From Bacteroidales bacterium (GTDB lineage Bacteria; Bacteroidota; Bacteroidia; Bacteroidales; VadinHA17), in NCBI GenBank assembly GCA_003157015.1, contig PMIJ01000211.1, positions 1 to 64,000 on the forward strand: 64,000 bases of DNA, read 5' to 3'. Each line of letters starts with the position of its first letter. Position 1 is the first letter of the stretch. The position numbers were made by a program, and so were the translations under genes. The notes beneath the pieces were generated by a model. The model did not search any database and had not been told where the DNA came from. It saw only the letters and a list, made by a program, of their open reading frames with translations. Shown piece after piece: positions 9,291 through 33,206 of this stretch.

Positions 9291-10775
9291 ATGAAAAATA
9301 AAGAAATCTGGTTTGTAACGGGTAGTCAGCATCTATATGGTCCTGATACACTTAAACAAGTTGCCGCTGACTCTTTAAAAATAGCATCAGCTCTTGATAA
9401 ATCACCGAAAATATCACATAAGGTGGTTTTTAAACCCGTGTTGACAACTCCCGATTCAATCACTGAACTATGTGCTGAGGCAAATAATTCCAAAAGCTGC
9501 ATCGGCCTTATAACCTGGATGCATACATTTTCGCCGGCTAAAATGTGGATAAGAGGCTTATCGATCCTTAATAAGCCCTTTCTTCATTTTCACACACAGC
9601 TTAACAGGGATATCCCATGGGAATCAATCGACATGAATTTCATGAACCTTAACCAATCGGCCCATGGCGATCGCGAATTTGGATTTATCGGTGCAAGGAT
9701 GAGGTTAAGCAGGAAAGTGGTAGTTGGGCATTATCAGGATCCCGAAGCTGTTGATCGGATAGCTGTCTGGATAAGAGCCGCATCGGCTTTTGATGATGCT
9801 ATAAATATGAAAGTAGCCAGGTTTGGAGACAATATGCGAGATGTTGCCGTAACTGAAGGCAATAAAGTAAGCGCACAGATGAAAATGGGTTATTCGGTTT
9901 ACGGATTTGGCATCGGAGATCTGGTGAAATCGGTAAACGAAGTATCTCCGGCTGCAATTAAAAAATTACTCGCTGAATACGGATCAGATTATAAATTAAC
10001 AAAAGCCGTAGCTGCATCCGATACTTTAAAAGAGGCTGCGAGGATAGAGCTTGGAATGGAAGCCTTCCTCAATGCGGGAAACTTTAAAGCTTTTACCACT
10101 ACATTTGAAGATCTGCACGGACTTAAGCAATTGCCCGGACTTGCAGTCCAGCGATTGATGGCCAAAGGATATGGTTTTGGTGCCGAAGGTGACTGGAAAA
10201 CAGCTGCTCTTGTACGCTCGATGAAAGTGATGTCGATGGGACTGAAAGGCGGAACTTCATTTATGGAAGATTACACCTATCATTTCGATCCCAAAGGCAT
10301 GAGAGTTCTGGGGGCTCATATGCTTGAGGTTTGCCCTACAATTGCTCTCGCCAGACCTTCAGTCGAAATTCATCCGCTATCAATCGGCGGAAAGGACGAT
10401 CCTGCCAGGCTTGTTTTTAAAACCGCCCCGGGAGACGCAATTAATGTATCCGTTATTGACCTTGGCAACAGGTTCAGAATGATAGTTAATGAGGTTGAGG
10501 TAGTTAAATGCCCCGATATGCCAAATCTTCCTGTTGCAAGTGTGCTCTGGAAACCGTTGCCCGACCTTAAGAAGGGTGCTGCAGCATGGATACTTGCAGG
10601 AGGTGCTCATCACACAGGCTTTAGTTCAGCAGTTAATTCAGAATATCTCGAGGACTTTGCAGGTATGATGGGAGTGGAGTACGTTCATATCGGTGAGAAT
10701 TGTGACTTAGTATCCTTAAGAAATGAATTAAGATGGAATGAAGTCTATTACCAACTCTCAGGTGGAATAATTTAG
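9291..10775 (+). CDS. araA: L-arabinose isomerase
   Basis: This enzyme converts L-arabinose to L-ribulose, the first cytosolic step of the isomerase pathway. At 494 residues it has the family's usual length. Visible hallmarks are the N-terminal [38 protein letters not shown], the [16 protein letters not shown] block that carries a catalytic Glu, [24 protein letters not shown] with a metal-binding His, and HHTGFS near the C-terminus. The start sits 39 bases after the symporter stop, so co-transcription is likely. A regulator and araD, araB follow, completing the pathway to D-xylulose 5-phosphate. No irregularity is seen. Confidence 0.97.
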
Positions 10776-10815: not shown

Positions 10816-11523
10816 ATGAAAATGAATATCTATCCGAGCAGTAATAAACATCTGGTAGCCGTGGACTGTATAATATTTGGCTACGATATCCTTGAAAAAG
10901 AGATTAAACTTCTTCTTTTTAAACGAATTGTTCAACCGGCTAAAGGTAGATGGTCCCTTGCAGGCGGATTCGTCGACCCTGACGAAAGCCTCGATGAAGC
11001 CGCCAGCAGAATTCTGCGAAAGCTGACTGGGCTTGACTCTGTTTATATGAAGCAATCATATGCTTATGGCGAAATAGACAGAGACCCGGGCGACAGGGTA
11101 ATATCCGTTGCATATTTTGCTCTTATAACCATAAGGAACATTGATAAGGAACTCGCTGAGCGGAACGGAGTCAGCTGGCGTTCATTATCAAGACTTCCCG
11201 AACTGATCTTTGACCATCCCTTAATGGTAAAACGTGCACTTAATGAGCTGCAGAGTCAGATAAAAATTAAACCGGTCGGATTTGAACTATTGCCTGAGAA
11301 ATTCACTCTGGTTCAAATGCAGGATCTATATGAAGCTATTTACCAGAGAAAAATTGATAAGAGAAATTTCAGGAAAAAAATATTATCAATGGGGATTCTT
11401 GAAAAGCTTGATGAGAAAGAGAGGGAAACTTCGAAAAAAGGAGCCTATTATTATAAGTTTAATGAGGGCACTTATAAAAGATTAAGACAGAATGGTTTCT
11501 ATTTCAATCTGGATGTAAACTAG
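10816..11523 (+). CDS. araR: Nudix-related transcriptional regulator of arabinose use (AraR of NrtR type)
   Basis: A 235-residue protein with an N-terminal Nudix-fold domain (about 10-140) and a C-terminal winged helix (about 150-230), the layout of NrtR-family regulators. The Nudix box region GGFVDPDESLDEAASR (from residue 50) keeps GX5E, but the REUXEE part reads RILRKL, so hydrolase activity should be lost, as expected for a sugar-sensing regulator. Bacteroides thetaiotaomicron uses a regulator of this family for L-arabinose. It lies between araA and araD in the same direction. It probably represses the cluster and releases DNA on binding arabinose. A palindrome at 7426-7438 is a candidate site. 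Assignment rests on domain order and context. Confidence 0.85.
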   Translation: MKMNIYPSSNKHLVAVDCIIFGYDILEKEIKLLLFKRIVQPAKGRWSLAGGFVDPDESLDEAASRILRKLTGLDSVYMKQSYAYGEIDRDPGDRVISVAYFALITIRNIDKELAERNGVSWRSLSRLPELIFDHPLMVKRALNELQSQIKIKPVGFELLPEKFTLVQMQDLYEAIYQRKIDKRNFRKKILSMGILEKLDEKERETSKKGAYYYKFNEGTYKRLRQNGFYFNLDVN

Positions 11524-11682: not shown

Positions 11683-12381
11683 ATGCTGGAAAAACTTAAA
11701 AACGACGTCTGCAAAGCCAATCTTGAATTGGTAGAAAAGGGTTTGGTTATTCACACATGGGGCAATGTCAGCGGGAAAGATAAAAAAAGCGGGCTTATAG
11801 TTATAAAACCATCAGGAGTAAGCTACAAGTCGATGAAAGCCGACGACATGGTGGTTATTGATGAGGAGGGTATTCTTGTGGAAGGAAAATATAAACCGTC
11901 AACTGACGCGCCAACTCATTTATTGCTTTACAGAACCTATGAATCGCTGGGAGGCGTAGTCCATACGCATTCATCTTATGCAACATCGTGGGCACAGGCA
12001 GGAAGGGCGATTCCTCCCTTTGGAACAACCCATGCTGACCACTTTTACGGAGAAGTTCCATGCACCAGGATACTGACGAAATCGGAGACGGAAAAAGATT
12101 ACGAAATCAATACGGGAAAGATTATAATTGAAAAGCTGGGAGAAGCCGATCCATTGACAGTACCATCAGTGCTGGTTAATGGTCACGGCCCTTTTACGTG
12201 GGGAACCGATGCTGACAATGCAGTTTATAACGCAGTTGCGCTTGAAGAGATTGCAAAGCTGGCATTTTATACTGTTCTGTTGGGAAAGACAGAACCAATA
12301 GATCAGTATTTACTTGATAAACATTTTAAAAGGAAACATGGCAAAGATGCTTATTACGGACAAGACAAGGATAATATTTAA
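11683..12381 (+). CDS. araD: L-ribulose-5-phosphate 4-epimerase
   Basis: A class II aldolase-type, metal-dependent epimerase that turns L-ribulose 5-phosphate into D-xylulose 5-phosphate, which enters the pentose phosphate pathway. The 232 residues are the usual length. Motifs: HTWGNVSG near the N-terminus, KPSGVSY for phosphate binding, the SDAPTH-like STDAPTHL, VVHTHSSYATSWAQAG with the zinc-binding His pair, GTTHADHFYGEVPCTR, and NGHGPFTWG with the third His. It follows the regulator after a palindromic spacer and precedes araB. L-fuculose-phosphate aldolase is excluded by the araD-type THADHFYG and GHGPFTWG motifs and by context. Confidence 0.96.
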   Translation: MLEKLKNDVCKANLELVEKGLVIHTWGNVSGKDKKSGLIVIKPSGVSYKSMKADDMVVIDEEGILVEGKYKPSTDAPTHLLLYRTYESLGGVVHTHSSYATSWAQAGRAIPPFGTTHADHFYGEVPCTRILTKSETEKDYEINTGKIIIEKLGEADPLTVPSVLVNGHGPFTWGTDADNAVYNAVALEEIAKLAFYTVLLGKTEPIDQYLLDKHFKRKHGKDAYYGQDKDNI

Positions 12382-12515: not shown

Positions 12516-14192
12516 ATGATAAAAAAATATGTAATCGGAATTGATTATGGAACCGACTCAGTTCGTTCTGTAGTTGTTGATACAACCAATGGGAAAATTG
12601 TTGGAACATCCGTATTTGATTACCCGAGATGGAAAAAGGGTCTCTATTGCGATCCCTCGATCAATCAGTTTCGTCAGCATCCCTTTGATTATGTTGAAGG
12701 ACTTGAGCAATCAGTAAAAGGGGCTCTCGCCGGTCTTGCTCCTGATATTGTGAACAATATTGTCGGTATCACAGTCGACACTACAGGATCAACTCCTGTG
12801 GCTGTCGATAAGGATGGAACTCCTCTTTCGATGAAGAAGGGTTATGAAAATAATCCTGATGCAATGTTTGTTCTCTGGAAGGATCACACAGCTGTTAAGG
12901 AGGCTGCGGAGATCAACAACATGGCAAGAACATGGGGAGGAACCGACTTCACTAAATTTGAAGGTGGAATTTATTCATCGGAATGGTTCTGGGCCAAAAT
13001 ATTACATGTTCTTCGTAATAGTGATGAAGTCAGGAAAAATGCCTGGTCATGGGTCGAACATTGCGACTGGATACCTGCTCTGCTGACAGGAAAAACAGAT
13101 CCGCTTCAATTGAAAAGAAGCCGTTGCGCGGCAGGACATAAAGCCATGTGGCATGAGGATTTTAATGGTTTGCCTGATGAAAAATTTCTTTCTAAAATCG
13201 ATCCGCTTCTGAAAGGTCTAAGAGAAAGACTTTTCAGCAAAACATACACTTGCGATACAAAAGTTGGTAATCTTTCGTCAGAATGGGCAAAGAGACTCGG
13301 TCTTTCATCTGAGGTGAAGGTTGGTGCCGGAACATTTGATGCACATACCGGAGGTGTTGGAGGAGAAATAAAACCATATCATCTAGTAAAAGTTATGGGA
13401 ACCTCCACATGCGACATGCTGGTTGCTCCCATGAAAGAGGTGGGGAATAAACTTGTTTCCGGTATTTGCGGGCAGGTTGATGGCTCTATAATTCCCGGAA
13501 TGCTTGGCCTTGAAGCTGGTCAATCAGCCTTTGGCGATATTTATGCCTGGTTTGGGAAATTATTAATGTGGCCAGTTGTAAACATAATAGCTGGTCTGGA
13601 TTGGCTGGATGAAAGCTCAAAGAAAAAAATTCAGGAAGAAACTGCTGATAAATTAATTGCTGAGTTAAGCCGGCAGGCAGGATCTCTTACTGTCGAGGAA
13701 ACATCAATAATCGCTCTTGACTGGATGAATGGCCGGAGAACCCCCGATGCCAATCAGGCTCTCAAAGGTGCCATAACAGGCTTGTCGCTGGGTTCTGACG
13801 CACCAAGGATTTTTAAAGCGCTTGTCGAAGCAACTGCATTCGGATCCAAAATGATTAATGAAAGATTTATATCAGAAGGTATCCGGATTGACGGAGTAAT
13901 AGCGATAGGAGGTGTTGCTAAAAAGAATCCCTTTGTAATGCAGATTGTTGCAGATGTTCTTAATATGCCCATTAAAGTTGCTGTTTCAGACCAGACCTGT
14001 GCCCTCGGTTCTGCTATGGCAGCAGCTGTAGTTGCAGGGGTTTATAAAGACATTCCCTCTGCACAGAAAGCGATGGGCAACGGTTTTGAAAAAGAGTACC
14101 AACCCGATCCTCTCAGAGCTAAGAGATATGAAACTCTCTTTAGAAAGTATAAGGAACTTGGTTCATTTATTGAGAAAAATCTAATTGATTAA
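12516..14192 (+). CDS. araB: Ribulokinase
   Basis: An FGGY-family kinase of 558 residues that phosphorylates L-ribulose. The N-terminal actin-like domain begins VIGIDYGTDSVRSVVVD. AraB-type features include GSTPVAVDKDGTPL, WKDHTA, EWFWAKILH and SRCAAGHKAMWHEDF. The C-terminal ATP domain has GAGTFDAHTGGVGG, VMGTSTCDMLV and the adenosine-binding GGVAKKNPFVMQIVADVL. These and its length point to ribulokinase rather than xylulokinase. It completes the araA-araD-araB set, and its stop is 121 bases before GH51, with a repeat in between. Confidence 0.96.
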   Translation: MIKKYVIGIDYGTDSVRSVVVDTTNGKIVGTSVFDYPRWKKGLYCDPSINQFRQHPFDYVEGLEQSVKGALAGLAPDIVNNIVGITVDTTGSTPVAVDKDGTPLSMKKGYENNPDAMFVLWKDHTAVKEAAEINNMARTWGGTDFTKFEGGIYSSEWFWAKILHVLRNSDEVRKNAWSWVEHCDWIPALLTGKTDPLQLKRSRCAAGHKAMWHEDFNGLPDEKFLSKIDPLLKGLRERLFSKTYTCDTKVGNLSSEWAKRLGLSSEVKVGAGTFDAHTGGVGGEIKPYHLVKVMGTSTCDMLVAPMKEVGNKLVSGICGQVDGSIIPGMLGLEAGQSAFGDIYAWFGKLLMWPVVNIIAGLDWLDESSKKKIQEETADKLIAELSRQAGSLTVEETSIIALDWMNGRRTPDANQALKGAITGLSLGSDAPRIFKALVEATAFGSKMINERFISEGIRIDGVIAIGGVAKKNPFVMQIVADVLNMPIKVAVSDQTCALGSAMAAAVVAGVYKDIPSAQKAMGNGFEKEYQPDPLRAKRYETLFRKYKELGSFIEKNLID

Positions 14193-14313: not shown

Positions 14314-15882
14314 ATGAAAAAATCTATTATTGTTATAAAAATTTTATTCCTTCTGACGTGGACTCAAACAAATGGCCAGAAAGAAGACCAGTCAGCAGTT
14401 AACCAGCTGATAATAGTTACAAATCATTCCGGACCGGTTATCAGTAAGGATATTTACGGACATTTTTCAGAGCACCTTGGTAATTGCATTTATGGAGGCC
14501 TGTGGGTGGGTACAGATTCTAAAATACCGAATACATATGGTATCAGAAATGATGTATTGTTTGCACTAAGGGAGATTAAAGTGCCAAATCTTCGTTGGCC
14601 AGGCGGCTGTTTTGCAGACACTTATCACTGGAAAGACGGTATAGGCCCCAAAGAAAGAAGAGCTTCTATAATAAATACGAACTGGGGCGGAGTCACCGAG
14701 GACAATTCTTTCGGGACTCATGAATTTATGAAACTCACTGAGCTTTTGGGATGTGATGCTTATATAAACGGAAATGTTGGCTCAGGTTCAGTAAAAGAGA
14801 TGGCAGACTGGATTGAATATCTTACCTCTGGAGCAGTGAGCCCCATGACAAGTCTTCGTAAAGAAAATGGTCAGGACAAACCATGGAAGGTAAAATATTT
14901 TGCAATCGGAAACGAAAACTGGGGTTGTGGCGGAAACATGACAGCCGAGTTCTATTCTAACACCATGAAGCAGTATTCCACATTCCTGGGCAACTATTCA
15001 GGTAACCAACTTTATAGAGTTGCATGCGGTCCCTCAGATTATAATTTCGGATGGACTGAGACATTAATGAAGGATGCCGGTACCCGAGAGATGTTCCAGG
15101 GTTTATCGATCCATTATTATTCTGTGGTCGATGGGTGGGGTTTTAAGGGATCGGCAACTAAATTCGATGAGAGAGAATGGTTTGAAACCATGCGGCTAAA
15201 TCTTCAGATGGACAATATTATTAAAGGACATTCAGCAATAATGGATCGTTACGATCCTGAGAAAACAAAAGGACTTGTTGTGGATGAATGGGGAAACTGG
15301 TACAATGTTGAACCCGGAACCAACCCCGGTTTTCTGTACCAGCAGAATTCAATGCGTGATGCAGTAACCGCAGCTATTCACCTGAACATTTTTAATCAGC
15401 ACGCCGACAGGGTTAAGGCTGCAAACCTTGCCCAGATGGTAAATGTTCTTCAATCGGTTATCCTTACAAAAGATGATAAAATGGTTCTGACACCGACTTA
15501 CTGGGTATTCAGAATGTTCAGGGTGCATCAGGAGGCAACGCTTCTGAATATTGACCTCAGATGCGAGGATTATGTTTATGGAAATAAGAAGATCCCTGCA
15601 ATTTCTGCTTCCGCATCTGTTGATAAAGACGGGAAGGTACATATCTCGCTTGCAAATCTTAATCCCGACAAACCGATTACTATAACCTGCCCTGTAATAG
15701 GTGATTCATTTAAAAAAATTACAGGTGAGGTGCTTACAGCAACTCAGATGAATTCCTATAACAGTTTTGAGAATCCCGATATAGTAAAACCGGTTGCTTT
15801 CAACGGGTTTACTATGAAAGATGGAATTCTGAGTATCACAATGCCCTCAAAATCAGTTGTTGTTTTGGAACTGATAAAATAA
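14314..15882 (+). CDS. Alpha-L-arabinofuranosidase, GH51, exported
   Basis: This enzyme releases alpha-L-arabinofuranose from arabinan, arabinoxylan or arabinogalactan side chains. It has 522 residues. An N-terminal signal peptide (about 1-21, ending TNGQ) suggests the periplasm. GH51 hallmarks are DIYGHFSEHLG, LRWPGGCFADTYHWKDGIGP, the acid/base Glu201 in YFAIGNENWGCGG and the nucleophile Glu325 in VDEWGNWY. The C-terminal beta-sandwich starts near residue 430. It follows araB in the same direction and provides free arabinose for the upstream pathway. The arrangement with GH127 immediately downstream covers both alpha and beta linkages. Confidence 0.94.
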   Translation: MKKSIIVIKILFLLTWTQTNGQKEDQSAVNQLIIVTNHSGPVISKDIYGHFSEHLGNCIYGGLWVGTDSKIPNTYGIRNDVLFALREIKVPNLRWPGGCFADTYHWKDGIGPKERRASIINTNWGGVTEDNSFGTHEFMKLTELLGCDAYINGNVGSGSVKEMADWIEYLTSGAVSPMTSLRKENGQDKPWKVKYFAIGNENWGCGGNMTAEFYSNTMKQYSTFLGNYSGNQLYRVACGPSDYNFGWTETLMKDAGTREMFQGLSIHYYSVVDGWGFKGSATKFDEREWFETMRLNLQMDNIIKGHSAIMDRYDPEKTKGLVVDEWGNWYNVEPGTNPGFLYQQNSMRDAVTAAIHLNIFNQHADRVKAANLAQMVNVLQSVILTKDDKMVLTPTYWVFRMFRVHQEATLLNIDLRCEDYVYGNKKIPAISASASVDKDGKVHISLANLNPDKPITITCPVIGDSFKKITGEVLTATQMNSYNSFENPDIVKPVAFNGFTMKDGILSITMPSKSVVVLELIK

Positions 15883-16035: not shown

Positions 16036-18063
16036 ATGAAGAAAAGAAATCAAGTAATTATGAATAAGTTAATTATAGGTATTTTAATTATTGCTGGTTC
16101 TTCGTTTTTTCTTATCTCCTGCACTAAAAAGTCCTCAAACAAAGCAGATTATCCTATCCAACCGGTACCATTCACTTCAGTTAAACTAACTGATAATTTC
16201 TGGGCCCCCCGTATAAAGAGAAATGCAGCTGTTACAATACCAATTGCATTCGGTTACTGTGAATCAACCGGAAGGGTGAAGAATTTTGAAATTGCGGCAG
16301 GTACTGACACCGGTAAATTTCAAACAATATATCCCTTTGACGACTCTGATGTCTATAAGATAATCGAAGGTGCCAGCTATTCCCTCCAGACTTTTCCTGA
16401 TCCGAAACTTGAATCATATCTCGATAGTCTAATTCACAAAATAGCCCTTGCGCAGGAACCCGATGGCTACCTGTATACCAACAGGACAATTGCAGAGAAA
16501 CATGGTGGAGCCGGACTTCATGAATGGGCGGGCAAAAACAGGTGGGAAATGGATTCTGTCCTCAGTCATGAACTATACAACCTTGGTCATCTTTACGAAG
16601 CTGCAGTTGCTCACTACCAGGCTACAGGAAAAAGAACCCTGCTTGATATTGCTTTAAAATCAGCTGCTCTGGTCAATAAGGATTTTGGATATGACAGGAT
16701 CAAAGTATACCCGGGCCATCAGGTTATTGAGATGGGACTTGTAAAGCTTTACCGCGTCACAGGTGAAAAAAAATACCTCGATCTTGCTCGGTTTTTTCTA
16801 GATATCCGTGGCCCTCGTGGCGAGCAGTACAATCAGGCTAACCTGAAACCTGTTGATCAGACGGAAGCTGTGGGTCATTCTGTCAGAGCCACTTATATGT
16901 ACTCCGGTATGGCAGATATAGCAGCAATTGAAAATGACGCTGCCTATCTTAATGCCATTACAAAAATATGGGTTGACCTGGTTTACTCGAAAATGTATTT
17001 GACAGGCGGAATTGGCGCTTCAGGGGGAAATGAAGGTTTTGCCGGGCCATTTGTTTTGCCTAATATGTCGGCTTATTGTGAAACATGCGCTTCTATCGGA
17101 GATATCTTCTTCAATCACAGGCTTTTTCTGTTACATGGACAGGCGAAATACATAGATGTCCTGGAAAAAACACTCTATAATTCCATGCTATCGGGAGTTT
17201 CATTGTCAGCCGACAGGTTTTTTTATCCTAACCCTCTTGAATCTGAAGGGAAAAATAAACGCCAGGCCTGGTTTGGATGTGCCTGCTGCCCTTCAAATGT
17301 GGCAAGGTTTGTACCTGCAATTCCAGGTTATATTTACGCTGTGACCGATAGAGAGCTTTATGTCAATCTGTTCATTTCAAATGATGCCAGTATCTCTGTT
17401 GGGAAAAGAAAGATCAATATTTCCCAAAAAGCAAATTTCCCATGGGATGGTAAGGTTGAAATTACAGTTAATCCGGAAAAAACTGATAAATTCATCCTTA
17501 AGATCAGGATCCCCGGGTGGGCCCAAAATGAGGCATTGCCTGGCGGTTTATATAAATTTGCCGACAAGGATTCTGAATCAGTGAAACTGATGGTAAATGG
17601 TAAAGACCTGGAGATCAATATTGTTGATGGATATGCTTTATTATCAAGGAAATGGGAAAAAGGAGACAAAGTCGAAATTAATTTCCCAATGCCTGTCCGT
17701 AAAGTTGTAGCTGATGAAAAAGTACTGGAAGACAAGGATAAAATAGCATTTCAGAGGGGCCCTGTCATTTTTTGTGCAGAATGGCCAGATAATGCCGGAA
17801 GTGTATTGGATTTGTCAATAAAGAAAAATGCATCTGTCACAACAGAATTTGATCCTTCGCTTCTTGAGGGGACTCAAGTTATTAAAACAACAGGCATTTA
17901 CATAAAGAAGACTCGTGATGGTAAGTCAGAGACAGGTCTCAGACCTGTCTCTACACCTGTATCTACATCTGTCGGAGAACCTGTTAATTTAATTCCTTAC
18001 GCTTTGTGGAATAATCGTGGCCCGGGACAGATGAAGGTCTGGTTTTCTGCAATAATTCCGTAA
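16036..18063 (+). CDS. Beta-L-arabinofuranosidase, GH127, lipoprotein, with repeat-derived insertion
   Basis: A 675-residue DUF1680/GH127 enzyme. Zinc and nucleophile residues are visible: Glu349 and Cys351 in YCETCASIG, and Cys417/Cys418 in CACCPSN. In HypBA1 from Bifidobacterium the equivalent Cys is the nucleophile. The signal ends FFLISC, a lipobox, so the protein is probably membrane-anchored. The start at 16036 gives eight extra residues before MNKLIIG at 16060, and either is possible. Near the C-terminus (17928-17954) a perfect palindromic repeat lies inside the reading frame. It adds a Thr/Ser/Pro-rich stretch before the conserved VNLIPYALWNNRGPG. It acts with GH51 to release arabinose. 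Confidence 0.9.
   Translation: MKKRNQVIMNKLIIGILIIAGSSFFLISCTKKSSNKADYPIQPVPFTSVKLTDNFWAPRIKRNAAVTIPIAFGYCESTGRVKNFEIAAGTDTGKFQTIYPFDDSDVYKIIEGASYSLQTFPDPKLESYLDSLIHKIALAQEPDGYLYTNRTIAEKHGGAGLHEWAGKNRWEMDSVLSHELYNLGHLYEAAVAHYQATGKRTLLDIALKSAALVNKDFGYDRIKVYPGHQVIEMGLVKLYRVTGEKKYLDLARFFLDIRGPRGEQYNQANLKPVDQTEAVGHSVRATYMYSGMADIAAIENDAAYLNAITKIWVDLVYSKMYLTGGIGASGGNEGFAGPFVLPNMSAYCETCASIGDIFFNHRLFLLHGQAKYIDVLEKTLYNSMLSGVSLSADRFFYPNPLESEGKNKRQAWFGCACCPSNVARFVPAIPGYIYAVTDRELYVNLFISNDASISVGKRKINISQKANFPWDGKVEITVNPEKTDKFILKIRIPGWAQNEALPGGLYKFADKDSESVKLMVNGKDLEINIVDGYALLSRKWEKGDKVEINFPMPVRKVVADEKVLEDKDKIAFQRGPVIFCAEWPDNAGSVLDLSIKKNASVTTEFDPSLLEGTQVIKTTGIYIKKTRDGKSETGLRPVSTPVSTSVGEPVNLIPYALWNNRGPGQMKVWFSAIIP
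17928..17954. repeat. Copy A of the 29-bp palindrome, inside the GH127 coding sequence
   Basis: Arms AGAGACAGGTCT and AGACCTGTCTCT flank a single C, followed by AC: the same word as the intergenic copies at 18072-18100 and 19761-19789. It is read in frame as ETGLRPVST. A partial direct repeat (ACCTGTATCTAC) follows. Confidence 0.85.
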
Positions 18064-18071
18064 ATTCAGTA

Positions 18072-18100
18072 GTAGAGACAGGTCTCAGACCTGTCTCTAC
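18072..18100. repeat. Copy B of the 29-bp palindrome, after GH127
   Basis: A perfect 14-1-14 palindrome starting GTAGAGACAGGTCT, nine bases after the GH127 stop. It can form a hairpin in RNA and may end transcription, though there is no U tract. Confidence 0.85.
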
Positions 18101-18163: not shown

Positions 18164-19756
18164 ATGCAAAGATCAATGACATTTTTTCTCATATTATTAT
18201 TGACATTAATAAATTGCTGTAATTCAAACAGAACTGATAAGAATTTAAATATTGCAGTCAATCCTCAGTCTGAAAATGCTTATTATGTCAGCACCCAAAG
18301 TGGAGATGACAGGAACCCGGGAACTCAGAAGAAACCTTTAAAATCAATTATTGAGCTTAATCTCAGGCTTCAGAAGAAGGTCGAAAACATCTTTCTGGCA
18401 GGAGGGCAGGTTTATGACGGGACTTTAGTTTTGAAGGGTTTCAATGGTAATAATCCGGATCCGGTTAAAATCAGTTCCTGGGGCGATGGCAAGGCAGTTA
18501 TCAATGGTGGTAATGCTGAAGCAATAAAGATCGAAAACTGTCAGAATATTTGGATTACAGATCTGGAACTAAAAGGAAACGGTAGAAAAAATGGCAACAG
18601 GACCAATGGCTTGTCAATTTCGCATTCAATGAACTGTAAGATAGAGAATATAACTGCAACAGGATTTCAGAAATCAGGAATCGATCTTTATGACTGCTAT
18701 GAATCTGAAATTGAAAAAGTCATTGCTTCAGAAAATGGTTTTTGTGGCATTAATATCATGGGCTCGGCTAGAAATCAATCACATAACATGATTATCAGGA
18801 ATTGCAGAGCTGAAAACAATCCGGGAGATCCTACAAATCTCGATAATCACAGTGGCAATGGTATCCTTGTCGGCGTCTCCGATAGTGTAACAATTGATCA
18901 TTGCAGCGCTACCGGAAATGGATGGGATATGCCCAGGCAGGGAAACGGACCAGTCGGAATCTGGACATGGGAAAGCGATCATATTATAATAGAATATTGT
19001 ATCAGCTATCGTAACAAAACTTCAAAAAATGCAAAAGATGGCGGAGGATTCGATCTTGACGGAGGAGTTACGAATTCACTGATTCAATATTGTCTTTCCT
19101 ATGAAAACCAGGGCTCCGGCTACGGATTGTTTCAATATTCGGGTGCATCTGCCTGGTCGCATAATATAGTCCGTTATTGCGTCAGTATAAATGATGGACA
19201 AACTACAGAAGGCGCCGGAAGTATTTTTATCTGGAACGGATCAAATGATAGCAATCAACTGACTGATTGTATGATTTATAATAACGTTGTGTACAATTCC
19301 CGTGTGCCTTTAATCAGTTTTGAAGCTTCATCAGCTCATAAAAACTTTGTATTCTGCAATAATATTTTTCTGGGTGCGGATTACCCTATCAGCGGAAATA
19401 TCAAAGACAGTAAATTTCTTGGGAATGACTGGTGGAATATTGAAGGTTCACCTAAATTCATGGGATTTTCAAGTATGTCTGAATGGGCAAAAGAGACCGG
19501 TCAGGAAATGATTAACGGTCAATTTGAAGGAATACAGCAAGATCCTGAACTAAAGGGTCCGCTGATAACTGACATCACGGATCCATATCGACTTGAAAAA
19601 CTTTATGGCTATAACCTGGAACCAGATTCACCGCTTAAAAATAAAGGATTGGATTTTAAATCTATCTTTGGACTTGTTCAGCCCGACAAAGACTTTTACG
19701 GAAACCCTATACCGGCTGATGTGTCACCTGAACCTGGTATATATAAAATGAAATGA
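18164..19756 (+). CDS. Right-handed parallel beta-helix lipoprotein, possible carbohydrate-active enzyme
   Basis: A 530-residue exported protein. The signal ends LTLINCCNSN, with Cys residues suitable for lipid attachment though the lipobox is atypical. The mature start YYVSTQSGDDRNPGTQ followed by PLKSI is typical of DUF1565-like or polysaccharide-lyase-like beta-helix proteins. Residues about 110-420 show beta-helix rungs with recurrent N-rich turns (IENCQNIWITDLEL, IIRNCRAENN, IIEYCISYRN). Asp/Gly-rich GGGFDLDGGVTNS and NLDNHSGNGILVG are candidate Ca2+ or active-site loops. Its place after GH51 and GH127 suggests action on a pectic or arabinose-bearing glycan. I cannot assign a PL or GH family. 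Confidence 0.7.
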   Translation: MQRSMTFFLILLLTLINCCNSNRTDKNLNIAVNPQSENAYYVSTQSGDDRNPGTQKKPLKSIIELNLRLQKKVENIFLAGGQVYDGTLVLKGFNGNNPDPVKISSWGDGKAVINGGNAEAIKIENCQNIWITDLELKGNGRKNGNRTNGLSISHSMNCKIENITATGFQKSGIDLYDCYESEIEKVIASENGFCGINIMGSARNQSHNMIIRNCRAENNPGDPTNLDNHSGNGILVGVSDSVTIDHCSATGNGWDMPRQGNGPVGIWTWESDHIIIEYCISYRNKTSKNAKDGGGFDLDGGVTNSLIQYCLSYENQGSGYGLFQYSGASAWSHNIVRYCVSINDGQTTEGAGSIFIWNGSNDSNQLTDCMIYNNVVYNSRVPLISFEASSAHKNFVFCNNIFLGADYPISGNIKDSKFLGNDWWNIEGSPKFMGFSSMSEWAKETGQEMINGQFEGIQQDPELKGPLITDITDPYRLEKLYGYNLEPDSPLKNKGLDFKSIFGLVQPDKDFYGNPIPADVSPEPGIYKMK

Positions 19757-19760
19757 AATT

Positions 19761-19789
19761 GTAGAAACGGGTCTCAGACCTGTCTCTAC
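19761..19789. repeat. Copy C of the 29-bp palindrome, after the beta-helix gene
   Basis: GTAGAAACGGGTCT and AGACCTGTCTCTAC around one C. The left arm differs from copy B at two positions. It starts four bases after the beta-helix stop. Confidence 0.8.
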
Positions 19790-19842: not shown

Positions 19843-20997
19843 ATGATTGAAAAATACTCAGTTTTTGTGCCCGAAGTCAGGGGAGATTTTAGTGATGAAT
19901 GGAGACAATGCCTGAAACAAATTATTTACTCTCAGGAATCATGCTTCAGGCTTATTAAGCTTAACGTGTTTACAGATCAGCCTGACAACGAAACATATAT
20001 AAAAACAAGAAAGGAAATCGGCAAATCTATTCAAAACGCCTTTGGTAATAATTGTCCGACCTTTAATATTACAGTTCATCCTCCCGAAAAACCATGGAAA
20101 ATTGTAGTTGAAGCAGGATATGCTCGTGTTGGTTCGGCAGATGTCACAACAAAGGTTTGGAATTCAATACCCTATGTAATATGCAATTCAGATTTTGGCA
20201 AAGAAGTATGGGCAGGCGGAATGGGCTTCGGTCTTTTTTATCTGGATTCAGGAAGTGCAGCCGGAGCAGCCTTCGATCAGATGAAAGCAATACTTGATGC
20301 TGAAGATATGTCATTTGATCATCTGGTGCGCCAATGGAATTATATTGGGAATATCCTTCAGATTAAAAAAGGTTTTCAGAATTACCAGGCATTTAATGAA
20401 GTAAGGAGTGAAGTATATCAAAAATATCGTAAAATTCACGGGTATCCTGCAGCTACCGGAATTGGAATGAAACTGGATGGAGTCAGTCTTGACTTTTGCG
20501 CTCTTAAGACAAAAGAACCGGTTACAATCAAACCAATTGAAAATCCTGACCAGGTCAATGCATATGAATATGGGCAGGAAGTCCTGAAAGGTGTCATCGG
20601 AAAGAGAAATCCACTAAAACATCCGCCACAGTTTGAGCGTGCGCTTCTCATATCAGGCGATCGGAAATCGACAATATTTGTTTCAGGGACAGCCTCTATT
20701 ATCGGACAGGAGACCATAGGGATTGATGATATTGAAGAACAAACAGGTATAACTATTGAAAACATTAATAAACTGACTGATCAGAGGAGAATTGGTAACC
20801 TGATCTCCTCCGGATTCATAGAATGGGGGAAATACATTCTATTGAGAGTTTACGTGAAAAATCAGGAAGATTTTACAAAAGTAAAATATATCTGCAAGGC
20901 ACGATTTCCTGAAGTCCCTGCTATCTATATACAATCTGATATCTGCCGCGAGAACCTCCTTGTTGAAATAGAAGCTGAGTTTTTAATAAATATTTAA
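19843..20997 (+). CDS. Chorismatase (FkbO/Hyg5/XanB2)-like, RidA-fold protein heading a mannoside operon
   Basis: A 384-residue cytosolic protein. The C-terminal half has IFVSGTASIIGQETIG and a following helix EEQTGITIENI, which is the signature of FkbO/Hyg5/XanB2-type chorismatases (YjgF/RidA-like fold). GYPAATGIGM and ALLISGDRK also fit that family. The N-terminal half carries WKIVVEAGYARVGS and a second RidA-like lobe. Known members hydrolyse chorismate to hydroxybenzoates, but the operon here (GH130, symporter, epimerase; 34-base gap downstream) has no aromatic function. It could have been recruited to another substrate, remove a reactive metabolite, or be a hitchhiker. Family similarity is recognised from motifs; function is unknown. 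Confidence 0.65.
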   Translation: MIEKYSVFVPEVRGDFSDEWRQCLKQIIYSQESCFRLIKLNVFTDQPDNETYIKTRKEIGKSIQNAFGNNCPTFNITVHPPEKPWKIVVEAGYARVGSADVTTKVWNSIPYVICNSDFGKEVWAGGMGFGLFYLDSGSAAGAAFDQMKAILDAEDMSFDHLVRQWNYIGNILQIKKGFQNYQAFNEVRSEVYQKYRKIHGYPAATGIGMKLDGVSLDFCALKTKEPVTIKPIENPDQVNAYEYGQEVLKGVIGKRNPLKHPPQFERALLISGDRKSTIFVSGTASIIGQETIGIDDIEEQTGITIENINKLTDQRRIGNLISSGFIEWGKYILLRVYVKNQEDFTKVKYICKARFPEVPAIYIQSDICRENLLVEIEAEFLINI

Positions 20998-21031
20998 ATG
21001 AATCAAGAACTATTATTAAATCGAATATATT

Positions 21032-22210
21032 ATGAAGACTGATTTCAATTCAAGATTGTCTGTCCTTTTGGAGAATCATACAAAATTAATAACCCGTAAA
21101 AATGAAAAAATTGAACCTGGCAACGGAATTTTTCTCAGATATAAATTTCCTGTTCTGACAGGAGATCATGCTCCTCTATTCTGGAAATATGATCTGAACC
21201 CTGAAACCAATCCGCATCTGATGGAACGATTTGGCATACATGCGGCTTTCAATGCAGGTGCACTGAAATTTGAAGGGAAATACATACTTGCTGTACGTGT
21301 TGAAGGAAATGACAGGAAATCTTTTTTTGCAATAGCTGAAAGCCCGAACGGAATAGATAATTTCCGGTTCTGGGATTATCCTGTTACCATGCCGGAAACA
21401 GAAAATCCTGATACAAATGTTTACGATATGCGCCTTACGAGGCATGAGGACGGATGGATTTATGGGATCTTTTGTTCTGAGAGAAAGGATCCCTCAGCTC
21501 CGGCAGGGGATCTTTCTTCCGCAGTGGCTGCTGCCGGAATTGCCAGAACGCATGATCTGAAGACGTGGAAAAGACTTCCTGATCTGGAGACAAAAAGTCA
21601 GCAACGAAATGTTGTTCTTCATCCTGAATTTGTAAAAGGCAAATATGCTCTTTATACCCGACCGCAGGACGGTTTCATTGATGCCGGATCGGGAGGAGGA
21701 ATAGGCTGGGCCCTAATAGATGATATTTCACATGCTGAAATTAAAGAGGAAAAAATCATTAATTTCCGATATTATCATACAATTAAAGAGCAGAAAAACG
21801 GAGAGGGTCCCCATCCGGTAAAAACAGATAAAGGATGGCTGCATCTGGCTCATGGTGTAAGAGGATGTGCCGCCGGTTTGAGATATGTACTTTATCTGTA
21901 TATGACTGATTTAAAGGATCCTTCAAAGCTGATAGCAGAACCTGCCGGATTTTTTATGGCTCCTGAAGGTGAAGAACGTGTGGGTGATGTTTCGAATGTT
22001 TTATTTACAAACGGATGGATTATCGATGAAGACGGATCAGTTTTTATTTATTATGCCTCTTCAGATACAAGGATGCATGTTGCCGTATCGACAATCGATA
22101 AACTGGTCGATTATTGTCTTAATACAGCTCCGGATGGATTACGGTCAGCTGCTTCTGTTGAAACTCTTAAAAAACTGATAGACAGAAACCTTAAAATGAA
22201 TAGTAAATAA
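21032..22210 (+). CDS. 4-O-beta-D-mannosyl-D-glucose phosphorylase, GH130
   Basis: This enzyme phosphorolyses beta-1,4-mannosyl-glucose to mannose 1-phosphate and glucose. At 392 residues it matches Bacteroides fragilis MGP in length. The catalytic Asp lies in [14 protein letters not shown] (Asp132; Asp131 in the B. fragilis enzyme as I recall it). Other GH130_1 features are [68 protein letters not shown] and [11 protein letters not shown]. There is no signal peptide, so it acts in the cytosol. It lies with a GPH symporter and a 2-epimerase, exactly the set of the mannobiose epimerase-phosphorylase pathway. Confidence 0.92.
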
Positions 22211-22245
22211 TTATGAATTTTTAAACGCACTTTATTGCTATCCCT

Positions 22246-23649
22246 ATGATCTTACAAAAACTGAAACTGAAAGAAAAAATAGGATATGGATTCGGTGATG
22301 CCGCAAGTTCCATGTTCTGGAAACTCTTCTCCATGTATCTGATGTTTTTTTATACTGATGTTTTCGGAATTTCTGCAACTCTTGTCGGAACAATGTTTCT
22401 GGTGACAAGAATATGGGATGCAGCTTTTGATCCGTTTGTGGGGATACTTGGCGACCGTACCGAGACAAGATGGGGGAAGTTCAGACCATACCTGCTCTGG
22501 GTTGCGGTACCTTTTGGAATTATTGGTGTTCTAACATTCACCACACCAGCATTTTCACAGTCAGGTAAGGTGATATATGCTTTCATTACCTATTCACTGA
22601 TGATGATGGTATATTCCATGATAAATGTACCCTACGCATCTTTAATGGGAGTCATGACTGCAGACGGAAAGGAGAGAACAAGTCTGGCTACTTTCAGGTT
22701 TATTTTTGCTTTTGGAGGAAGCCTGCTGGTGCTAGCGCTCGCCGAACCGCTGGTAGATATCTTCAGTAAAATGGGAAAAGGAGGTGTTAATCTTCAGCTT
22801 GGCTGGCAGCTCGCTGCGGTGGTTTTTGCTATTATTGCAATTACTTTTTTCATGTTCACCTTTTCATGGACACGCGAACGTATAAAACCGGTAACAATAA
22901 AAACTTCACTCAAAAAAGATCTCAACGACCTCCTGCATAATTCTCCCTGGTTTATTCTCCTGGGCGCAGGTATCGCAGCAATATTCTTTAACTCAATACG
23001 TGACGGAGCTGCTATCTATTATTTTAAATATTATATTCAGGGACAAAGTGCATTTACTATAAATGCTTTCAAGCTTACCATCACGCTTAGCAGCCTCTAT
23101 TTTGTACTCGGACAGGCGGCAAATATAGTCGGGGTAATTCTTGCCAAACCTGTATCGGACCGGATTGGGAAGAAATATACTTTCTTATATGCAATGTTGT
23201 TTGCCGCTGTCTTCAGTATTGGTTTTTACTGGCTCGACCGTAACAGCATAACCCTCATATTCGTTTTTCAGTTTTTAATCAGTATGAGTGCAGGGATTAT
23301 CTTTCCACTTGTTTGGTCAATGTATGCTGATGCGGCAGACTATTCCGAATGGAAAACAGGTCGACGAGCTACGGGCCTGGTCTTCTCTGCATCATCAATG
23401 TCACAAAAATTCGGCTGGACATTGGGAGGCGCCCTGGCCGGCTGGTTGTTAGGATATTATGGTTTCAAGGCAAATGTTGTGCAAACTGCAGAAGCTCAGA
23501 CAGGTATAAAAATGATGCTTAGCTTTTTCCCGGCAATAGGCACTTTATTGGGCGCATTCTTTATGTTTATCTATCCTCTTAGCGAGAAGAAAATGCTGAC
23601 AATAAGTGCAGAACTTGCTGTCAGAAGAGATTCAGGCAAAAAAGAATAG
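22246..23649 (+). CDS. GPH-family MFS sugar symporter, probable mannobiose importer
   Basis: A 467-residue membrane protein with about 12 segments. The GPH (glycoside-pentoside-hexuronide) signature is visible: AFDPFVGILGDRTETRWG plus KFRPYLLW between helices 2 and 3, and YADAADYSEWKTGRRATGL in the second half. The first helix region begins EKIGYGFGDAASSMFWK. It is 35 bases from GH130 and 29 bases from the epimerase, so the three are co-transcribed. The equivalent B. fragilis locus also carries such a transporter between the phosphorylase and epimerase. The substrate is probably beta-1,4-mannobiose, by context. Confidence 0.88.
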   Translation: MILQKLKLKEKIGYGFGDAASSMFWKLFSMYLMFFYTDVFGISATLVGTMFLVTRIWDAAFDPFVGILGDRTETRWGKFRPYLLWVAVPFGIIGVLTFTTPAFSQSGKVIYAFITYSLMMMVYSMINVPYASLMGVMTADGKERTSLATFRFIFAFGGSLLVLALAEPLVDIFSKMGKGGVNLQLGWQLAAVVFAIIAITFFMFTFSWTRERIKPVTIKTSLKKDLNDLLHNSPWFILLGAGIAAIFFNSIRDGAAIYYFKYYIQGQSAFTINAFKLTITLSSLYFVLGQAANIVGVILAKPVSDRIGKKYTFLYAMLFAAVFSIGFYWLDRNSITLIFVFQFLISMSAGIIFPLVWSMYADAADYSEWKTGRRATGLVFSASSMSQKFGWTLGGALAGWLLGYYGFKANVVQTAEAQTGIKMMLSFFPAIGTLLGAFFMFIYPLSEKKMLTISAELAVRRDSGKKE

Positions 23650-23678
23650 TGAGCAGTTAAAAAATAAATATAAAATAA

Positions 23679-24881
23679 ATGTCAGCAAACAAGCTGAAAA
23701 CACTTAAGACAGAAGTTCAATCCGAACTGGTAAATAATATTCTGCCATTCTGGATGACAAAAATGATTGATGACAGGGATGGGGGATTCTATGGACGTAT
23801 AGATGGTTTGGGCCATGTTTTCAATGATGCTGATAAAGGATGCGTTCTGAATGCCAGGATTCTATGGACCTTTTCATCTGCCTTCAGGGTTCTGAAAAAT
23901 CCCGGTTATCTGAAAGCGGCTGAAAGAGCAAAGGATTATCTCCTTGCTCATTTTTTTGATAAAGAGTATGGCGGTGTTTTCTGGCTTCTTGACCATAAAG
24001 GAGAGGTGAAAAACGGTAAAAAACAGATATATGCCCAGGCTTTTGCAATATACGGGCTGACTGAATATTACAGGATCACAAATGATAAAACATGCTTCGA
24101 AAAAGCCATTGAACTGTTCAAGCTCATAGAAAAATACAGTTATGATATCAATCTTGACGGATATTTTGAGGCATTCTCAAGGGAATGGAGTGTCGCTGAC
24201 GATCTTCGTCTTAGCGCAAAAGATGCCAATGAAAAAAAGACAATGAATACTCATCTTCATGTCCTGGAAGCTTATACAAACCTCTTCAGGGTATGGAAAG
24301 ATGACCTGTTGAAGAAGCAGTTGTACAGACTTATCGATGTATTTACTGATAAGATTGTAAATAACCGGACTTTTAATCTTAATATGTTCTTCGATGAAGA
24401 ATGGAACGATAAAACTGACCTTGTTTCTTATGGACATAATATTGAATCATCGTGGCTTATTTACGAAGCCGCCGTGGTTCTTGGCGATAAAGATGTCATC
24501 GGAAAAGTGAAAAGGATATGTCTGATGATCGCAGATGCTTCCAAAAAGGGTGTAATGACTGATGGTAGCATGATTTATGAGTATTTCTTCAATTCCGGCC
24601 ATATCGATTCAGACAGACACTGGTGGGTACAGGCTGAATCAGTTCTTGGTTTTCTGAATGCTTATACCCTATCAGGTCAGAAAGAGTACCTCGAACTTAG
24701 CCTTGCAGCATGGAAATTTATCTCCTCTAACCTGGTCGACAGACAGAATGGTGAATGGTTCTGGAGTGTTGATAAAAACATGAAGCCAAATCTTAAAGAG
24801 GATAAAGCTGGATTCTGGAAATGCCCTTATCATGATTCCAGAATGTGTCTGGAAATAATTGAAAAGCAAAATGATATATAA
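23679..24881 (+). CDS. Mannobiose/cellobiose 2-epimerase (AGE superfamily)
   Basis: The enzyme converts beta-1,4-mannobiose to mannosyl-glucose, the substrate of the neighbouring phosphorylase. It has 400 residues forming an (alpha/alpha)6 barrel, with no signal peptide. Conserved residues of cellobiose 2-epimerases are visible: MTKMIDDRDGGFYGRID, NTHLHVLEAYTNLFR with a catalytic His, YGHNIESSWL, RHWWVQAE, and KCPYHDSRMCLEI near the C-terminus with the last essential His. N-acetylglucosamine 2-epimerase is a weaker alternative, because the operon context and the YGHNIES segment favour the disaccharide enzyme. Confidence 0.92.
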   Translation: MSANKLKTLKTEVQSELVNNILPFWMTKMIDDRDGGFYGRIDGLGHVFNDADKGCVLNARILWTFSSAFRVLKNPGYLKAAERAKDYLLAHFFDKEYGGVFWLLDHKGEVKNGKKQIYAQAFAIYGLTEYYRITNDKTCFEKAIELFKLIEKYSYDINLDGYFEAFSREWSVADDLRLSAKDANEKKTMNTHLHVLEAYTNLFRVWKDDLLKKQLYRLIDVFTDKIVNNRTFNLNMFFDEEWNDKTDLVSYGHNIESSWLIYEAAVVLGDKDVIGKVKRICLMIADASKKGVMTDGSMIYEYFFNSGHIDSDRHWWVQAESVLGFLNAYTLSGQKEYLELSLAAWKFISSNLVDRQNGEWFWSVDKNMKPNLKEDKAGFWKCPYHDSRMCLEIIEKQNDI

Positions 24882-24921
24882 TTTATTTTTTCCATTATTA
24901 TACTTACCTAAAAATAGTAAA

Positions 24922-28090
<3,169 letters not shown>

Positions 28091-32081: not shown

Positions 32082-33206
32082 ATGAAAAAAATTCTGTTTT
32101 TATCACTAACTCTGGTTCCAGTAATGTTTGCTTCCTGTAACCAGTCAACAAAAAATAATGAAATGGTTAAAAAGGATGTTTTTGGCACACGCAATGGAAA
32201 AGAGGTGTATCTGTTAACTCTTACAAACAAATCAGGTAATGTCATAAGACTTACCAATTACGGAGCAAAAATTAACTGGATCGAGGTTCCTGACAAGAAT
32301 GGAAAGAAGGACAATGTTACTTTTGGTTATGACACTTTTGATGAAACAGTCAATGGTGATATGTCTTTCGGATCCGTCGTAGGACGATATGCTAACAGGA
32401 TTGCCGGAGGGAAGTTTACTCTTGACGGCACCGTTTATAATACACCGGTAAATAATGGTCCAAATACACTCCATGGAGGTCCGCAAGGCTGGCATAGTGT
32501 TGTGTGGAACACTGAAATCCTTAAAGAAAGTAAATTTCCCGCTGTGAAATTTACCTATGTGAGCCCGGATATGGAAGAAGGGTTCCCCGGAAAAGTGAAT
32601 GCATCTATCACTTACACCTGGACTGACAATAATGAAATTGTAATGGATTACACCTGTTCAACCGACAAGAGAACAATCGTAAATGTTACCAACCATGCTT
32701 ACTTTAATCTTCACGGAGCAGGTAACGGCGATATTCTTGATCATGTGCTGACGCTTAAAGCAGCAGCTTTCACTCCTGTCGATTCTGTCATGATCCCTAC
32801 CGGAGAGATCCGTCCTGTAGCCGGAACTCCATTTGATTTTAATACACCCCATGCCATAGGTGAAAGAATAAATGAAAAATATGATCAGCTTATTCTCGGT
32901 CGCGGCTATGATCATAACTATATCCTTGATAAAAAAGAAAAGGTAAATGTTACTGTATATGAACCTGAAAGCGGTCGCATACTCGAGGTGATTACTGATC
33001 AGCCCGGAATGCAGCTTTACACAGGTAATTTCCTTACCGGGTCGCAGATTGGTCATGGAGGAAAAGCATTCAAATTCAGGTCCGGTTTATGTCTCGAATC
33101 GGGCCATTATCCTGATAGTCCGAATCATCCTGATTTCCCGACTACCATTCTGAATCCTGGTGAAACATTCAAATCAACTACTATTTACAGATTCTCAGTC
33201 AAATAG
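32082..33206 (+). CDS. galM: Aldose 1-epimerase (mutarotase), lipoprotein form
   Basis: This enzyme interconverts alpha and beta anomers of released sugars. It has 374 residues. The signal ends VMFASC, a lipobox, so the enzyme sits in the periplasm or on a membrane. Galactose mutarotase hallmarks: NYGAKINWIEVPDKNG, GRYANRIAGGKF, NTLHGGPQGWH, the active His in VNVTNHAYFNLHG, RGYDHNYIL, QLYTGNFL and the catalytic Glu in CLESGHYPDSPNHPDFP. It lies 185 bases after the esterase, in a gap with no repeat or recognisable signal. It precedes the Gfo/Idh and GH3 genes and probably supports sugar uptake after extracytoplasmic hydrolysis. Confidence 0.93.
   Translation: MKKILFLSLTLVPVMFASCNQSTKNNEMVKKDVFGTRNGKEVYLLTLTNKSGNVIRLTNYGAKINWIEVPDKNGKKDNVTFGYDTFDETVNGDMSFGSVVGRYANRIAGGKFTLDGTVYNTPVNNGPNTLHGGPQGWHSVVWNTEILKESKFPAVKFTYVSPDMEEGFPGKVNASITYTWTDNNEIVMDYTCSTDKRTIVNVTNHAYFNLHGAGNGDILDHVLTLKAAAFTPVDSVMIPTGEIRPVAGTPFDFNTPHAIGERINEKYDQLILGRGYDHNYILDKKEKVNVTVYEPESGRILEVITDQPGMQLYTGNFLTGSQIGHGGKAFKFRSGLCLESGHYPDSPNHPDFPTTILNPGETFKSTTIYRFSVK

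What the first reader, a model, noticed from the sequence alone, without database searches (positions are those of the whole stretch)
19843..24881. Chorismatase-like gene at the head of the mannobiose epimerase/phosphorylase operon
GH130, GPH symporter and 2-epimerase form a known pathway for beta-mannobiose. The first gene instead carries the FVSGTASI...GQET signature of FkbO/Hyg5/XanB2 chorismatases, with only 34 bases to GH130. No aromatic pathway gene is nearby. It may be a new enzyme acting on a sugar-derived or enol-type intermediate, or a RidA-like protector. This is the best candidate here for an undescribed functional link.
Basis: partly seen in the sequence, partly recalled or inferred. 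Interest (0 to 1): 0.65.

Follow-up and report, generated by a model that had tools for sequence, protein, structure and literature searches.

The report
Chorismatase-like enzyme in an arabinose operon
A Bacteroidales-type bacterium carries a chorismatase-like enzyme gene among its plant-sugar genes; relatives suggest it belongs not with the mannose-sugar genes beside it but with the arabinose operon and, more widely, with two little-known envelope proteins, one of which probably carries haem.

Summary
Observation confirmed: 19843-20997 encodes a 384-aa FkbO/Hyg5-type protein, 34 bases before a GH130 gene. The model matches Hyg5 and FkbO along the whole chain (Z 30, about 316 residues). The catalytic Glu (E375) and the Hyg5-type Gly and Cys (G282, C368) are invariant in 45 of 45 rows (window plus 44 relatives). 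Predicted, untested reaction: chorismate to hydroxybenzoate plus pyruvate.

The mannobiose link is not supported. In 36 loci of the genus, GH130 follows the gene in 5. In 22, arabinose-operon or GH51/GH127/beta-helix genes lie upstream (araB itself in 18); in 11 a PD40 protein with a CxNCH haem motif (8 of these with DUF6057 in view); 3 are unplaced.

In 393 Bacteroidales-order genomes, 43 of 51 with DUF6057 also have a chorismatase-like gene (expected 9.5). This holds among GH127-positive and GH127-negative genomes, and in the two DUF6057 genomes found outside the order the genes are clustered. Other relatives sit beside hydrazine-synthase-like haem proteins, di-haem oxidoreductases and cytochrome c assembly genes. 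30 of 73 genomes with the gene lack DUF6057.

Best reading: a cytosolic chorismatase supplying a small aromatic to an envelope haem-protein system, here placed with arabinan use. Product, user and haem are inferred.

The parts
19843..20997 (+). chorismatase-like gene (FkbO/Hyg5 fold, 384 aa; no signal peptide apparent by eye, not tested by a program)
20677..20715 (+). FVSGTASIIGQET motif, residues 279-291; G282 (20686-20688) aligns with Hyg5 G240 / FkbO A244
20944..20967 (+). C368 (20944-20946, Hyg5 C327) to catalytic E375 (20965-20967, Hyg5 E334)
   Evidence: role of E334 from PMC7170507 (passages read)
9291..10775 (+). araA, L-arabinose isomerase
   Evidence: upstream in relatives
10816..11523 (+). 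araR-type NUDIX regulator
11683..12381 (+). class II aldolase family, araD-type L-ribulose-5-phosphate 4-epimerase by context
12516..14192 (+). araB, ribulokinase
14314..15882 (+). GH51-type arabinofuranosidase (NCBIfam ArfA match below cut-off)
16036..18063 (+). GH127 beta-L-arabinofuranosidase-like
18164..19756 (+). right-handed beta-helix protein
21032..22210 (+). GH130, 4-O-beta-D-mannosyl-D-glucose phosphorylase-like; accessory neighbour (5 of 36 loci)
22246..23649 (+). GPH sugar symporter
23679..24881 (+). cellobiose/mannobiose 2-epimerase-like
32082..33206 (+). aldose 1-epimerase, recurrent downstream gene

Best explanation
A cytosolic chorismatase of the Hyg5 kind: it splits chorismate into pyruvate and a hydroxybenzoate (3-HBA, possibly with 4-HBA). 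The aromatic product, or something made from it, is used in the cell envelope by c-type haem proteins: in this lineage the DUF6057 membrane protein and its partner, a PD40 beta-propeller protein with a CxNCH haem site and a lipoprotein-like start, encoded elsewhere in the same genome. In the window the gene has settled with the L-arabinose/arabinan genes, so it would be made when plant arabinan is eaten; the GH130-GPH-epimerase cassette downstream is an ordinary mannoside pathway that happens to follow it. Shown here: fold, conserved catalytic residues, recurrent position with arabinose genes, co-occurrence and frequent clustering with DUF6057/CxNCH genes. Inferred: chorismate as substrate, the product, haem attachment, co-regulation, and that the product serves the haem proteins.
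For: Fold: AlphaFold2 model pLDDT 80.7; Hyg5 5a3k Z 30.3, 3.0 A over 316 residues, FkbO 4bps Z 30.2; the next entry scores 14.8. Residues: E375, G282, C368, R163, W165, Y181, R188 and R369 invariant in 45 of 45 rows (window plus 44 relatives); E375 in 21 of 21 and G282, C368 each in 19 of 21 distant rows. Genome co-occurrence: 43 of 51 DUF6057 genomes have the gene, 73 of 393 overall, expected 9.5, Fisher 1.6e-29; among GH127-positive genomes 26 of 30 with DUF6057 against 11 of 68 without (3.2e-11), among GH127-negative 3 of 6 against 11 of 191 (0.005) (I took the 295 genomes to be G000-G294); phylum sample 5 of 6 DUF6057 genomes against 4 of 389 (9.6e-9; three of the five are also in the order sample); genus 32 of 35 genomes with the gene have DUF6057 against 12 of 23 without it (0.0012). 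Clustering: at least 16 genomes of the order sample hold both within 12 kb start to start, 10 of them within 3.6 kb (one search scored at most three DUF6057 candidates a genome). In both DUF6057 genomes outside the order, G431 and G470, the genes lie in one cluster (L192, L193). 22 of 28 DUF6057 ORFs in loci fetched around this gene have a CxxCH gene next door, all of them CxNCH. A CxxCH gene lies within three genes of 33 of 65 copies against 11 of 274 control positions in 37 stretches of the same genomes. Own genome: DUF6057 on contig C7, tail to tail with a PD40/TPR protein with CANCH.
Against: Among the neighbour proteins scanned none visibly uses a hydroxybenzoate; the rest of the genome was not searched for one. 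30 of 73 genomes with the gene lack DUF6057, 11 of 35 among the strong matches, so the pair is not obligatory; in the genus 12 of 23 genomes without the gene have DUF6057. The window clade itself rarely neighbours haem-motif genes (2 of 11; 11 of 36 loci), and the window has none near. TIGR04444 is below its cut-off and identity to Hyg5 is about 25%. Part of the motif (283-292) lies in a low-confidence stretch of the model. Fisher tests treat related genomes as independent. One of the 19 CxxCH hits of the class-1 loci is an Fe-S protein (L071). CxxCH is a motif, not proof of haem. DUF6057 has no known function and its fold could not be predicted (pLDDT 45.7).
Confidence: 0.42

Rival explanations
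1. A chorismatase whose hydroxybenzoate is a diffusible signal or secondary metabolite, made during growth on arabinan, with no direct role in haem proteins.
For: Same residues and fold. In Lysobacter sp. 3655 LenB2 is reported to make 3-HBA and 4-HBA that act as signals, and N-acetylglucosamine feeds into that circuit (PMC13153030, abstract and passages).
Against: Does not explain co-occurrence and clustering with DUF6057 and CxNCH genes.
Confidence: 0.22
2. A Rid-type protector or deaminase that removes a reactive by-product of pentose or haem-protein metabolism, keeping the chorismatase fold.
For: The two halves each resemble Rid proteins (Z about 12-14 over 105-122 residues); Pfam Ribonuc_L-PSP matches; a one-domain Rid-like paralogue sits in a hydrazine-synthase-like cluster of the same genome (C87).
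Against: The whole-chain match to chorismatases is far stronger (Z 30) and the chorismatase-specific Glu, Gly and Cys are invariant; TIGR00004 is far below its cut-off.
Confidence: 0.15
3. A new enzyme of the beta-mannobiose pathway.
For: 34 bases from GH130, and the order gene-GH130-GPH-epimerase recurs in 5 of 36 loci.
Against: In 31 of 36 loci GH130 is not the next gene (in one of these, L182, the contig ends at the gene); in the four of ten first relatives where GH130 is next door, GH130 is 90-92% identical while this protein is 57-79%; the known pathway needs no further enzyme (recalled; papers such as PMC4599007 seen in a listing only).
Confidence: 0.05
4. The link with DUF6057 and CxNCH genes is only shared lifestyle or shared descent of polysaccharide degraders.
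For: Both genes track GH127 (Fisher 3.4e-10 and 4.9e-11); relatedness of the genomes was not corrected for.
Against: The association persists inside GH127-positive and GH127-negative genomes, and the genes are neighbours in distant taxa (L192, L193).
Confidence: 0.16

Closest known systems
Hyg5, 3-hydroxybenzoate-forming chorismatase (CH-II; PDB 5ag3, 5a3k)
   Same: Whole fold (Z 30); catalytic Glu; Gly and Cys that mark the 3-HBA type
   Different: About 25% identity; no aromatic or polyketide gene among the scanned neighbours; arabinose-operon or haem-motif neighbours instead
FkbO chorismatase (CH-I; PDB 4bps)
   Same: Fold and catalytic Glu
   Different: FkbO has Ala (244, 331) at both positions where this family has Gly and Cys
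XanB2 / LenB2 (CH-III type), 3-HBA and 4-HBA makers
   Same: Same family by name; a sugar-linked signalling circuit is reported for LenB2
   Different: Not compared by sequence here
RidA/YjgF/UK114 proteins
   Same: Each half of the protein has this fold
   Different: Two fused domains with chorismatase residues

Membership tests
FkbO/Hyg5/XanB2 chorismatase family | two-domain Rid-type fold matching Hyg5/FkbO along the whole chain | tested here: met
   Z 30.3 over 316 residues
FkbO/Hyg5/XanB2 chorismatase family | acid residue equivalent to Hyg5 Glu334 | tested here: met
   E375, 45 of 45 and 21 of 21 rows
FkbO/Hyg5/XanB2 chorismatase family | NCBIfam TIGR04444 over its curated cut-off | tested here: not met
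   144.7 bits against 325
FkbO/Hyg5/XanB2 chorismatase family | Pfam PF21168 over its gathering score | tested here: met
   47.9 against 27
FkbO/Hyg5/XanB2 chorismatase family | cleavage of chorismate | not testable with these tools
   needs an assay
CH-II (Hyg5) subfamily | Gly at Hyg5 240 and Cys at 327 (Nat-hyg5 G231, C318) | tested here: met
   G282 and C368 in 45 of 45 rows; residues named in PMC7170507; Hyg5 numbering by the offset of 9 between Glu325 and Glu334
CH-II (Hyg5) subfamily | third marker, Nat-hyg5 Gly164 | tested here: inconclusive
   G206 and G208 are Gly but FkbO has Gly there too; exact equivalent not established
CH-II (Hyg5) subfamily | linked polyketide/aromatic biosynthesis cluster | tested here: not met
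   no such family among the genes from 7575 to 37229; the rest of the genome not searched
beta-mannobiose pathway | constant neighbour of GH130 and epimerase | tested here: not met
   5 of 36 loci
RidA enamine/imine deaminase | NCBIfam TIGR00004 over cut-off | tested here: not met
   22.5 bits against 106.25

The most novel reading that the evidence does not exclude
Chorismatase-like enzyme, DUF6057 and the CxNCH PD40 protein are three parts of one undescribed envelope redox system of Bacteroidota, in which a chorismate-derived aromatic serves as cofactor, mediator or building block for surface c-type haem proteins used during polysaccharide degradation; hydrazine-synthase-like and di-haem oxidoreductase clusters use the same supply in other lineages.
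Probability: 0.3. Interest if true: 0.8.

Novelty: new variant of a known kind. Interest (0 to 1): 0.52.

Why it matters
Chorismatases are known (recalled, and passages) mainly as makers of starter units or signals in actinomycetes and xanthomonads. A divergent group with strong matches in 35 of 393 genomes and 23 families of this order, with Hyg5-type residues kept but arabinose-operon or haem-motif neighbours, points to a role in plant-polysaccharide degraders that I did not find described (searches; open-licence papers only, results seen as listings). It also gives a lead on DUF6057 and on CxNCH propeller proteins.

Tried and rejected
Mannobiose enzyme: set aside on neighbourhoods. Head-of-operon promoter: inconclusive. 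DUF6057 fold: model too poor (pLDDT 45.7, two-row alignment, first part of the protein missing) and not searched. A lifestyle explanation was tested with GH127 as control and only partly explains the link. The tree (quick method, 72 rows; loci L001-L010, rows under 340 aa and rows above 1e-40 left out) has 25 open forks and several long branches, so only a broad statement is taken from it: the arabinose and CxNCH positions alternate, at least 5 changes of the arabinose label being forced by starred branches; four of the five GH130-linked rows fall in one starred set of six rows that also holds two without GH130, and the fifth (L160) lies elsewhere. Paper searches for DUF6057 (none), chorismatase with Bacteroid* (2 listed), chorismatase with cytochrome c and gene cluster (3 listed), the older enzyme names (6 listed), propeller haem lipoproteins (2 listed) and 3-HBA with Bacteroidales (none) gave nothing on this link; listings only, except passages of PMC13153030. 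Hydrazine synthase homologues outside anammox: listing only, nothing used. PMC4433059: two passages, background only. XanB2 was not compared by sequence. In one search only the printed parts of Hyg5 and FkbO were used, so the first 100 or so residues are not compared with Hyg5 there.
Full report
What is there. The gene at 19843-20997 is real and correctly placed. It encodes a 384-residue protein that matches chorismatase models in Pfam and NCBIfam and the solved chorismatases Hyg5 and FkbO by sequence. The AlphaFold2 model, built on 11 sequences, the window's and ten relatives' (A1), has pLDDT 80.7 and superposes on Hyg5 and FkbO along the whole chain (Z 30.3 and 30.2, 316 residues, 3.0 A). 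Foldseek ranks the same entries first. Two stretches are poorly modelled, 238-263 and 283-292; the second holds part of the motif.

Active site. An alignment with the printed parts of Hyg5 and FkbO places E375 on Hyg5 Glu334, the residue that protonates chorismate, G282 on Gly240 and C368 on Cys327; the role of Glu334 and the subfamily residues come from passages of PMC7170507. These are invariant in 45 of 45 rows (window plus 44 relatives), although BLAST identity to the window's protein falls to about 30%. FkbO has Ala at both the Gly and the Cys place. This fits a Hyg5-type, 3-hydroxybenzoate-forming enzyme. Against full membership: TIGR04444 scores 144.7 bits against a cut-off of 325. No activity is known.

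Neighbours in close relatives. Of 10 loci in named genomes, all Bacteroidales or Bacteroidetes MAGs, GH130-GPH-epimerase follows the gene in 4 (L001, L003, L005, L006) and not in 6. In the genus, 35 of 58 genomes hold the gene, giving 36 loci with the window and L042. Reading those (tally): 22 have araB, GH51, GH127 or the window's beta-helix gene upstream, 18 of them araB; 11 have a PD40 protein with CxNCH just upstream, 8 of them with DUF6057 in view; 3 could not be placed, two of these at contig ends. GH130 is the next gene downstream in 5 of 36. In L042 the gene lies directly between araB and aldose 1-epimerase.

The wider family. In 393 genomes of the order, 73 have a match at E 1e-5, 35 of them strong (split). 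I fetched stretches for 34 strong and 17 of 38 weak-only genomes. Clustering of neighbours and family scans of cluster members show recurrent partners: DUF6057 with a PD40 protein bearing CxNCH; two-haem-motif propeller proteins resembling hydrazine synthase beta/gamma; HZS_alpha-domain proteins; di-haem oxidoreductases (DHOR) with imelysin and a porin; CcsA/ResB cytochrome c assembly proteins; in one locus PSCyt2/PSD1. One or a few members of each cluster were scanned, not all. A CxxCH gene lies within three genes in 19 of 33 (class 1 outside the window clade), 12 of 21 (class 2) and 2 of 11 (window clade) copies, against 11 of 274 control positions from 37 other stretches of the same genomes. 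One of the 19 is an iron-sulfur protein (L071). Control positions overlap each other, so this is a description, not a test. Of 17 PD40 or similar CxxCH proteins printed, many have a lipoprotein-like N-terminus by eye and share a block around the motif, with a His and often a Met downstream; axial ligation is inference.

DUF6057. It occurs in 51 of 393 order genomes, 43 of them with the chorismatase-like gene (expected 9.5; Fisher 1.6e-29); 22 of the 24 families with DUF6057 also have the gene. By class: 24 of 35 strong and 19 of 38 weak-only genomes have DUF6057. In the phylum sample, 5 of 6 DUF6057 genomes have the gene against 4 of 389 others; three of the five are in the order sample too, and the two new ones, G431 and G470, outside the order, have the genes in one cluster (L192, L193), with weak-scoring copies. 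In the genus, 32 of 35 genomes with the gene have DUF6057 against 12 of 23 without; the three exceptions are 85-89% complete. Of the 22 genomes with the arabinose-type position, 17 carry DUF6057 only on other contigs, 2 also on the same contig, 3 not at all (read by hand); the window's own is on C7, tail to tail with a PD40/TPR protein with CANCH, with a SusD gene beyond (L098). A lifestyle control with GH127 in 295 genomes leaves the link strong among GH127-positive genomes, 26 of 30 against 11 of 68, and present among GH127-negative ones, 3 of 6 against 11 of 191. Relatedness of genomes was not corrected for. 30 of 73 genomes with the gene lack DUF6057.

Interpretation. A single chorismatase-like gene per genome in most cases, found in different operons in related species, with DUF6057/CxNCH pairs often elsewhere in the genome, fits a cytosolic supplier of a diffusible small molecule better than a step of one sugar pathway. 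The likely molecule is a hydroxybenzoate. How the envelope proteins would use it (cofactor, mediator, building block) is not known. The rivals are a signal maker, a Rid-type protector, and shared lifestyle or descent.

Novelty. The fold and probable chemistry are known; the clade, its position among arabinose genes and the link with DUF6057 and haem-motif proteins did not turn up in the papers searched. I call it a new variant of a known kind.

Noticed in passing
24859-28090: A GH2 beta-galactosidase-type gene is split into two overlapping frames (24859-26010 and 25925-28090); in L003 the matching ORF is one piece of 1020 aa. Frameshift or assembly error.
   Followed up: partly
17926-17954, 18072-18100, 19761-19789: A 29-base near-palindrome, GTAGAGACAGGTCTCAGACCTGTCTCTAC, occurs at three places here with up to 3 mismatches (none expected); its half-site occurs 34 times in the genome (19 forward, 15 reverse, control 0). 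REP-like element.
   Followed up: partly
own genome contig C87, locus L082 9188-16137: A Rid-like one-domain protein with weak chorismatase similarity lies near hydrazine-synthase-like proteins (HZS_alpha domain; beta/gamma-like with three CxxCH) and an ASPIC/UnbV protein.
   Followed up: partly
window 19843-20997 against its neighbours: The protein diverges faster than its neighbours: 57-79% identical in the four relatives where GH130 is 90-92% and GPH 95-96%.
   Followed up: no
L058, L061, L064, L069, L072, L074: In another lineage a Dak1-type kinase cluster lies downstream of the gene, and in L059, L061, L064, L072, L074 an IclR regulator upstream (BLAST clusters; L064 scanned: Dak1, Dak2, DeoC/LacD aldolase, IclR).
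   Followed up: no
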